DNA of 64,000 nt. Source: Tilletia caries (lineage: Eukaryota; Basidiomycota; Exobasidiomycetes; Tilletiales; Tilletiaceae). The stretch lies in the NCBI GenBank assembly GCA_032718865.1, contig JALUTQ010000024.1, positions 977,501-1,041,500 on the forward strand, given 5' to 3'. A program made the translations under genes and the position numbers. Positions 26,547 through 27,389 of this stretch are shown here, one piece after another; position 1 is the stretch's first letter; the number at the start of each line of letters is the position of its first letter. The notes beneath the pieces are model-generated. The model had not been told where the DNA came from and made no database searches. It saw nothing but the letters and a program-made list of their open reading frames with translations.

Positions 26547-27389
26547 ATGCCCCCCAAGGTCCGCGCTTCTGCTCCGGAGGTCTCCCTCGGCCCCCAGGTC
26601 GGCGAGGGTGAGCTCGTCTTCGGCGTTGCCCAGTATGTGTCTTGTTGCTCTGGAGAAGTCTTTTTGGAACACAATCAGCAAGCTCATCCGTGCTTTGTTG
26701 TTTCCCTTTCCTTTCTCCCTCCTCCGCGGTCTCGTTGTTAACTCTTGTAGCAGTGAGTAAGGCATACGCGCCAGAACACATCAAGTTACCAGCACTGACT
26801 AAACTTCATCATCTCCCACTCCCATCCGTTATCTTTGCTCGCCTGCGCTTGTTCCTCTACCCCAGTCGTGAGTACAGCCGGAATTCTGTCGCACGAGCAC
26901 TTGCTCTCATGCAGCACCCATCTGACTCTCCGCTCTCCCACGTGCACAGTTCGCCTCGTTCAACGACACCTTCGTCCACGTCACCGATCTCACCGGCCGT
27001 GAGACCATCTCCCGTGTCACCGGCGGCATGAAGGTCAAGGCCGACCGTGACGAGTCCTCGCCTTACGCTGCCATGTTGGCCGCCCAGGACTGCGCCGTCC
27101 GCTGCAAGGAGGTTGGCATCAACGCCCTCCACATCAAGCTCCGTGCCACCGGTGGTACCGGCACCAAGACTCCCGGCCCCGGTGCCCAGAGTGCTCTCCG
27201 TGCCCTTGCCCGTGCCGGTATGCGCATTGGTCGCATTGGTGAGTGCCTCGTCTACTATCTCTCCATCCTACCTTCAGAAGGGAACTGACATCATCGCTCC
27301 GCACCTCCCACCAATCTGCAGAGGATGTCACTCCCGTCCCCAGCGACAGCACCCGCAGAAAGGGTGGTCGCCGTGGTCGTCGTCTGTGA
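26547..27389 (+). CDS. RPS14: 40S ribosomal protein uS11 (RPS14) with two 2-nt micro-exons
   Basis: Exons 26547-26632, 26751-26752, 26866-26867, 26950-27238 and 27322-27389 give 148 residues. Exon 1 ends with CA after ...ELVFGVA. The next large exon starts TTC GCC TCG (FASFNDTFVHVTD). To rebuild the near-invariant AHIFASF, exactly four nucleotides, CATC, are needed. They occur as CA (TAG|CA|GTGAGT) and TC (CAG|TC|GTGAGT), each with perfect splice signals, separated by introns of 118, 113 and 82 nt. The rest is canonical uS11: TGGMKVKADRDESSPYAAML, HIKLRATGG, PGPGAQSALRALAR, ending RRKGGRRGRRL. A single long intron with donor GTGTCT would instead give AQYFASF, which is against conservation. 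Confidence 0.9.

What the first reader, a model, noticed from the sequence alone, without database searches (positions are those of the whole stretch)
26547..26960. Two consecutive 2-nucleotide micro-exons in the uS11 (RPS14) gene
Seen: exon 1 ends ...GGC GTT GCC CA and the next long exon starts TTC GCC TCG. Between them are TAG|CA|GTGAGT (26751-26752) and CAG|TC|GTGAGT (26866-26867). Joining CA-CA-TC-TTC rebuilds A-H-I-F-A-S-F, almost invariant in eukaryotic uS11. The three introns are then 118, 113 and 82 nt, normal for this window, instead of one unusual 317-nt intron. Exons of 2 nt are below the size thought to allow exon definition, so the splicing order (perhaps recursive or intron-defined) is of interest.
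Basis: partly seen in the sequence, partly recalled or inferred. Interest (0 to 1): 0.87.

Follow-up and report, generated by a model that had tools for sequence, protein, structure and literature searches.

The report
Two 2-base exons in uS11 gene
In a bunt-fungus gene for an essential ribosomal protein, four bases of the protein code seem to be split into two separate 2-base exons between three introns; such tiny exons would force the cell to splice the message one intron at a time, and at least one public gene annotation gets this gene wrong.

Summary
In uS11 (RPS14), exon 1 ends GCC CA and the next long exon starts TTC GCC; between them lie AG|CA|GTGAGT and AG|TC|GTGAGT. Joined, they give A-H-I-F. 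Only two GT-AG parses put exactly two residues between Ala and Phe: this one (three introns) and a single 313-nt intron giving A-Q-Y-F. The rival needs donor GTGTCT, lacking the +5 G found in 68 of 68 reference introns of this genome, and a residue pair seen in none of 142 intact homologues or 80 prokaryotic loci. Shuffles give such a parse in 1, 31 or 705 of 20,000, by strictness of sites. It is the genome's only cytosolic-type uS11 match. A public Tilletia laevis model equals this sequence, 234 of 234 residues, read in a wrong frame and skipping the tiny exons; 4 of 4 listed Tilletia clusters lack His-Ile here. Exons of 1 nt are known; my searches listed no consecutive 2-nt exons.

The parts
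26436..26516 (+). probable 5'UTR intron, 81 nt (AAG|GTCAGT .. CAACAG|ACC)
   Evidence: public T. laevis protein P0122 is reproduced 234 of 234 residues with this stretch removed; no RNA evidence
26547..26632 (+). first coding exon of uS11 (MPPKVRAS..FGVA + CA)
   Evidence: aligns with fungal uS11
26633..26750 (+). intron 1, 118 nt, GTATGT..TTGTAG, phase 2 in the His codon
   Evidence: donor +1..+6 7.18 bits (11 of 68), 9-base score 3.99 (0 of 68), acceptor 5.05 (8 of 68)
26637..26642 (+). rival donor GTGTCT (single-intron parse, A-Q-Y-F)
   Evidence: +1..+6 1.77 bits, below all 68 reference donors; +5 G is missing
26751..26752 (+). 2-nt exon CA (last base of His codon, first base of Ile codon)
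   Evidence: flanked by TTGTAG and GTGAGT
26753..26865 (+). intron 2, 113 nt, GTGAGT..CCCCAG, phase 1; its only CTRAY branch-point-like motif lies 67 nt from the 3' end
   Evidence: donor +1..+6 10.29 bits, the set maximum; acceptor 7.97, 30 of 68
26866..26867 (+). 2-nt exon TC (last two bases of Ile codon)
   Evidence: flanked by CCCCAG and GTGAGT
26868..26949 (+). intron 3, 82 nt, GTGAGT..GCACAG, phase 0; CTGAC 24 nt from the 3' end
   Evidence: donor +1..+6 10.29 bits; acceptor 6.98, 19 of 68
26950..27238 (+). main uS11 exon, from FASFNDTF
   Evidence: PF00411 match E 2.9e-32
27239..27321 (+). intron 4, 83 nt, GTGAGT..CTGCAG
27322..27389 (+). last uS11 exon with stop (..GGRRGRRL*)

Best explanation
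The uS11 gene of this Tilletia has three canonical GT-AG introns inserted within four coding bases (CA^CA^TC^TTC). Each intron is recognised by its own donor and acceptor (intron definition). Because 3' and 5' sites 2 nt apart cannot be occupied at once, neighbouring introns must be removed one after another. In the likeliest order, 5' to 3', each step adds two bases to exon 1 and places the next GTGAGT directly behind them, as at a recursive splice site that leaves 2 nt behind instead of none. The mRNA then reads GCC CAC ATC TTC, Ala-His-Ile-Phe. Shown: the sequence, the parse, its uniqueness among the parses enumerated, residue conservation and a single copy in this assembly. Inferred: use of both exons in mRNA (likely) and sequential removal (very likely if the exons are used). 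The order is a weak inference.
For: Exactly two GT-AG parses give two residues between Ala and Phe, and only this one gives a pair seen at the site; one search found one parse for A-H-I-F with GT or GC donors and minimum introns of 20, 30 or 40 nt. Of the 156 proteins listed by two capped searches, 142 match [AC][HR][IL][FY]ASFND, and none of the other 14 has Q-Y. In 80 prokaryotic uS11 loci residue 1 is H/R in 72, N in 5, Y in 3, never Q; residue 2 is I/L/V in 80 of 80. The genome's divergent, mitochondrial-looking uS11 keeps the pair (..RLHIMTSRNNT..). The pattern is rare by chance. +5 G is present in 68 of 68 reference introns and absent from the rival donor. There is one cytosolic-type uS11 match in the genome, and skipping CA, TC or both gives stops at codons 47, 47 and 56, so both must be included. 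The 4 listed Tilletia clusters lack H-I and have unrelated residues at the place; the T. laevis model is shown to skip the tiny exons in a wrong frame. The genome uses other tiny exons: 7 and 12 nt in a row in calmodulin, 9 nt in uL14. Both downstream donors score higher after the upstream splice (6.66 to 8.15 and 8.22 to 9.71 bits), mildly favouring 5'-to-3' order.
Against: No RNA evidence was available. Intron 1 has a weak 9-base donor and a weak acceptor and no CTRAY motif (by that script's count 23 of 68 reference introns also lack one 8-80 nt from the end). My own spliced aligner chose the Q-Y rival with 8 of 8 reference proteins at intron penalties -14 and -20, and the tiny exons with 8 of 8 only at -6. 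The odd residues of other Tilletia models did not match the window's introns better than shuffles (29, 12 and 197 of 200 shuffles as good), so conservation of the tiny exons outside this species is not shown.
Confidence: 0.9

Rival explanations
1. One 313-nt intron from donor 26637 (GTGTCT) to acceptor 26949. The protein carries Gln-Tyr in place of His-Ile and there are no tiny exons.
For: It keeps the frame and gives a 148-residue protein. It needs two fewer introns, and a spliced aligner with a high intron penalty prefers it. 7 of 68 reference introns are this long or longer.
Against: The donor lacks +5 G, present in 68 of 68 reference introns; its 9-base score of 2.46 bits and +1..+6 score of 1.77 lie below all 68. 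The pair Q-Y is absent from the 156 listed proteins and the 80 prokaryotic loci. It leaves AG|CA|GTGAGT and AG|TC|GTGAGT, which spell exactly the missing bases, as coincidence (1, 31 or 705 of 20,000 shuffles by strictness). None of the 4 Tilletia models contains AQYF.
Confidence: 0.06
2. The missing four bases come from another route, such as a non-canonical site, nested (stwintron-like) excision or another arrangement of islands.
For: Only GT-AG and, GC-AG parses with up to four introns were enumerated. Intron 1 has weak signals.
Against: Complete GT and AG sites already flank exactly the needed bases, so nothing else is required.
Confidence: 0.03
3. The locus is a pseudogene or the assembly is faulty here.
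For: The 4 listed Tilletia models of this gene all look broken at this point.
Against: The rest of the protein is intact. It is the only cytosolic-type uS11 match in the genome. A separately deposited T. laevis model matches the window's exons, 234 of 234 residues, and models of three other Tilletia species fail at the same spot.
Confidence: 0.01

Closest known systems
Single-nucleotide exon of Arabidopsis APC11 (PMC4674806; part 1 of 3 of the text and passages read)
   Same: Ultra-short constitutive exon needed for frame, missed by annotation; the authors propose intron definition combined with recursive, one-after-another removal.
   Different: One 1-nt exon in a plant, proven by cDNA and reporters; here two 2-nt exons in a row in a fungal ribosomal protein gene, without RNA proof.
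Single-nucleotide exon of Fusarium CYP621A (PMC12940212; part 1 of 3 read)
   Same: Fungal gene; a phase mismatch at a conserved motif is solved by a tiny exon between AG and GT; the abstract calls it the first for a fungal gene, and RNA reads support it. Its introduction cites exons of 2-5 bp in Arabidopsis, Drosophila and humans.
   Different: One exon, in a rarely expressed P450 of an ascomycete; here two in tandem in a basidiomycete housekeeping gene.
Conserved 1-nt microexons of plant APC11 and VPS55, and adjacent 5-nt and 12-nt microexons in rice (PMC8831610; passages)
   Same: GTRAGT donors behind 1-nt exons; adjacent microexons exist; widespread misannotation.
   Different: The adjacent pair there is larger; no consecutive 2-nt exons in the passages read.
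4-bp microexon of human MPC1, still spliced when cut to 2, 1 or 0 bp (PMC9929638; passages)
   Same: A 2-bp exon can be spliced in; distant branch points at -68 and -63, as the CTGAC at -67 in intron 2 here would be.
   Different: An engineered single exon in mammalian minigenes; the authors argue for exon definition.
Recursive splicing at ratchet points in Drosophila (PMC8605326; abstract and outline)
   Same: An acceptor lies next to a donor and intervening sequence is removed stepwise.
   Different: Those sites abut and lie in long introns; here 2 nt stay at each site and the whole block is 317 nt.
Stwintrons of fungi (PMC12403724, PMC9024468; search listing only)
   Same: Fungal intron arrangements needing consecutive excision.
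   Different: There a splice signal is split by an inner intron; here every intron has its own complete GT and AG and coding bases lie between.

Membership tests
Ultra-short (3 nt or less) constitutive microexon | Exon of at most 3 nt between two complete canonical introns | tested here: met
   GT-AG introns of 118, 113 and 82 nt around CA and TC
Ultra-short (3 nt or less) constitutive microexon | Required for frame and for conserved residues | tested here: met
Ultra-short (3 nt or less) constitutive microexon | Present in mature mRNA | not testable with these tools
   No RNA reads are held
Ultra-short (3 nt or less) constitutive microexon | Conserved in relatives | tested here: inconclusive
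   4 of 4 listed Tilletia clusters are mis-modelled at the site, but their DNA is not held and the read-through comparison was not significant
Recursive splice site / ratchet point | Acceptor directly abuts donor (0-nt exon) | tested here: not met
   2 nt lie between AG and GT at both places
Recursive splice site / ratchet point | Stepwise removal shown by intermediates or lariats | not testable with these tools
   Needs RNA
Stwintron | An inner intron splits a donor, branch or acceptor signal of an outer intron | tested here: not met
   Each of the three introns has its own uninterrupted GT donor and AG acceptor; nested parses were not enumerated
Cytosolic ribosomal protein uS11 (RPS14) | Ribosomal_S11 domain and full-length match to eukaryotic uS11 | tested here: met
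   PF00411; the two best solved 40S uS11 chains match residues 1-148

The most novel reading that the evidence does not exclude
The block is an obligatory three-step recursive intron in a fungus, with two ratchet points that each deposit two coding bases. Because each of the six skipping or single-retention products tested stops early, it could also act as a dosage switch for uS11, like the splicing-based self-repression reported for yeast RPS14B, with inclusion of the 2-nt exons under feedback. It would be a genus-wide trait of Tilletia built by two further intron gains beside an older intron.
Probability: 0.15. Interest if true: 0.85.

Novelty: new variant of a known kind. Interest (0 to 1): 0.64.

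Why it matters
If RNA confirms it, an essential gene relies on constitutive inclusion of two exons of 2 nt each, twice in a row. If neighbouring introns cannot hold spliceosomes at the same time, the order of removal becomes a direct test of recursive against intron-defined splicing in a fungus. It also shows that annotation can fail for one of the most conserved proteins of the cell: the public T. laevis model reads exon 1 in a frame that does not encode uS11, and the listed models of T. indica, T. walkeri and T. horrida carry foreign residues at the same place. Three introns within four coding bases is also a sharp case for how introns are gained.

Tried and rejected
Parses: one microexon of up to 12 nt (10 in-frame candidates, none leaving exactly two residues between Ala and Phe); single introns ending at earlier acceptors (none open to TTC); GC donors (no new solution for A-H-I-F).

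Intron copies elsewhere (introner-like origin): the 317-nt block matched only itself in the genome.

De novo gene finder on the window: unreliable; it missed uS11 itself and is not used.

Metagenome scans are capped at 0 and were not tried.

Read-through of other Tilletia models against the window's introns: not significant.

Reference introns: the first run put four genes on the wrong strand and gave nonsense; they were rerun. 68 introns kept; 10 dropped before the count as poorly aligned ends (ARF 1, UBC 1, uL14 2, uL5 1, uL2 1, PP2A 3, RAN 1). One donor (a CDC42 paralogue) was first placed by my aligner at GTGTCT, the very type of the rival, and moved by hand to GTGAGT six bases on after inspection. 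With the first placement GTGTCT was 1 of 68 and the 9-base scores of 26633 and 26637 were close, 4.04 and 3.55.

Literature: 7 paper searches. One search asked for '2-nt exon', 'two-nucleotide exon' and '2-nt microexon': 0 occurrences in the 15 papers returned for its six terms. The other searches showed only the top 10-30 of their hits; no title or abstract start shown named consecutive 2-nt exons or uS11 splicing in Tilletia. The library is open-licence PMC only.

Full report
What is there. The window holds a single, otherwise ordinary uS11 (RPS14) gene on the + strand, 26547-27389. Joining 26547-26632, 26751-26752, 26866-26867, 26950-27238 and 27322-27389 gives 447 nt and a 148-residue protein, 93% identical to uS11 of Tilletiaria anomala over 93% of the query. 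Two of the exons are 2 nt long. Codons across the joins are CA^C, A^TC, then TTC; the three introns sit in phase 2, 1 and 0 within four coding bases.

Is it forced? I enumerated GT-AG parses with exactly two residues between Ala (GCC) and Phe (TTC). Restricting residues to those seen at the place leaves only the latter. Joining 26632 straight to 26950 shifts the frame and stops at codon 56.

Conservation of the two residues. Two protein searches scored 8000 candidates each and listed the best 120 of each, 156 distinct proteins in all. 142 of 156 match [AC][HR][IL][FY]ASFND: AHIF 65, AHIY 42, ARIF 28, ARIY 5, CHIF 1, AHLY 1. The pattern itself asks for H/R and I/L, so I looked at the 14 others: four Tilletia clusters, Moesziomyces, Pseudozyma hubeiensis, a chimeric ostracod-labelled protein and seven without a source's name. 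They carry unrelated sequence before or into the FASFND motif or are rearranged; none has Q-Y. In 80 prokaryotic loci (best 80 of 479 confirmed; 79 titled archaea, one Proteobacteria) the pair is HI 64, NI 5, HV 3, HL 3, YI 3, RI 2. A divergent, mitochondrial-looking uS11 of the same genome reads RLHIMTSRNNT (that it is mitochondrial is my inference).

Splice signals. From 20 conserved loci of the same genome I kept 68 introns by protein-guided alignment: median 90.5 nt, range 68-571, 7 of 68 at least 313 nt. Donors are GTGAGT 27, GTACGT 12, GTCAGT 6, GTGCGT 6, GTGTGT 4, GTGAGC 4, GTATGT 3 and others 6; +5 is G in 68 of 68. One of these donors was re-placed by hand, and 10 introns at poorly aligned ends were dropped. 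The donors after CA and TC are GTGAGT, the highest +1..+6 score of the set (10.29 bits). The rival donor GTGTCT scores 1.77 (+1..+6) and 2.46 (nine bases), below all 68. Intron 1 is the weak one: GTATGT scores 7.18 (11 of 68), but with exonic CCA the nine-base score is 3.99, below all 68, and its acceptor is 8 of 68. CTRAY branch-like motifs lie 67 nt (intron 2) and 24 nt (intron 3) from the 3' ends; intron 1 has none, only TTAAC near its end. Of 68 reference introns 45 have such a motif 8-80 nt from the end, 43 of those within 48 nt, so intron 2 would be unusual if its CTGAC is used.

Chance. With 20,000 dinucleotide shuffles per class, a parse spelling A-H-I-F appears in 705, 31 and 1 shuffles for loose, middle and strict site definitions; the strict class was defined after seeing the sites.

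Against. A spliced aligner with high intron penalties (-14, -20) chose the Q-Y rival for 8 of 8 reference proteins; with penalty -6 it found both tiny exons for 8 of 8. The choice therefore rests on splice-site and residue evidence, not on parsimony. There is no RNA.

The organism and its public annotation. A public T. laevis protein (P0122) is reproduced exactly, 234 of 234 residues, from the window by starting at an upstream ATG (26179), removing 26436-26516, ending exon 1 at 26607 in a wrong frame and splicing to 26950. So the window is T. laevis or a sister nearly identical at this locus, and that model lacks the real N-terminus. Models of T. indica, T. walkeri and T. horrida are 99-100% identical over residues 32-148 but carry different unrelated residues before FASFND. 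In T. horrida the break is exactly between AH and FASF; in T. walkeri the residues LSMY fit read-through of CA|GTATG. These are suggestive only: frameshift-tolerant comparison with the window's introns was not better than shuffles. Other Tilletia species may lie below the listed 120 rows.

Origin. Mis-modelled proteins of other fungi hint at older introns at the same spot..NSIFASF in Moesziomyces and P. hubeiensis and ..NNSIYASF in three proteins without names fit an intron after CA, the place of intron 1..PQFASF in an unnamed protein (P0152) fits an intron before Phe, the place of intron 3. If so, intron 1 or 3 is old and the others were added beside it; this is inference from residues, not DNA. 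The 317-nt block has no copy elsewhere in the genome at the search's sensitivity.

How it works. Signals 2 nt apart cannot both be engaged (inference), so neighbouring introns must be removed one after another. APC11's authors reached a similar view for a 1-nt exon, and cite potato invertase, where the second intron goes first (PMC4674806); MPC1's authors argue for exon definition even at 2 bp (PMC9929638). Here the upstream splice improves the next donor (6.66 to 8.15 bits, then 8.22 to 9.71), a mild reason to favour 5'-to-3'. Skipping CA, TC or both gives stops at codons 47, 47 and 56, and retention of intron 1, 2 or 3 at 65, 32 and 75, so the exons must be constitutive. Yeast RPS14B is cited as repressed at splicing by its own protein, though the screen that cites it saw no large effect for RPS14B, a gene it describes as very weakly expressed (PMC7732827, passages); whether Tilletia uses this block so is open.

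Tiny exons elsewhere in the genome. Of 48 internal exons between kept introns the shortest are 7, 9, 12, 17 and 17 nt; calmodulin has 7 and 12 nt in a row. So the genome tolerates consecutive microexons, and uS11 is the extreme case in this sample. The aligner used for these genes had an intron penalty of -8, so exons of 1-3 nt in them could have been missed.

Novelty. Exons of 1 nt are known, one of them fungal, and 2-5 bp exons are cited for Arabidopsis, Drosophila and humans (PMC12940212, part 1 read). My seven paper searches showed no case of two consecutive 2-nt exons; most displayed only the top of their lists and the library covers only open-licence PMC papers.

Noticed in passing
L012 1151-1157 and 1271-1282 (calmodulin gene, own genome): Two consecutive microexons of 7 and 12 nt near the calmodulin N-terminus; the joined protein is a clean calmodulin.
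   Followed up: partly
L056 1939-1947 (uL14/RPL23 gene, own genome): A 9-nt exon (CTTGTACTT) completes F-L-Y-F of uL14, with GTGAGT donors before and after it.
   Followed up: partly
window 26179-27389 and P0122: The public T. laevis uS11 model has a false N-terminus: upstream ATG, wrong frame in exon 1, false donor at 26608, tiny exons skipped.
   Followed up: yes
P0009, P0124-P0127, P0137, P0141, P0152: uS11 models of other organisms also carry unrelated residues just before or within the FASFND motif, suggesting that this place is an intron hot spot with several neighbouring positions.
   Followed up: partly
P0001: A 40S uS11 protein is filed under Clostridioides difficile on a 757-bp contig, with an internal duplication; presumably eukaryotic contamination.
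   Followed up: no
window 30264-30347, - strand: A tRNA gene of 84 nt whose anticodon ARAGORN gives with two bases only, perhaps holding an intron.
   Followed up: no
L002 (own genome, C1:824027-824455): A second, divergent Ribosomal_S11 match in a 446-residue open frame, mitochondrial in look.
   Followed up: partly
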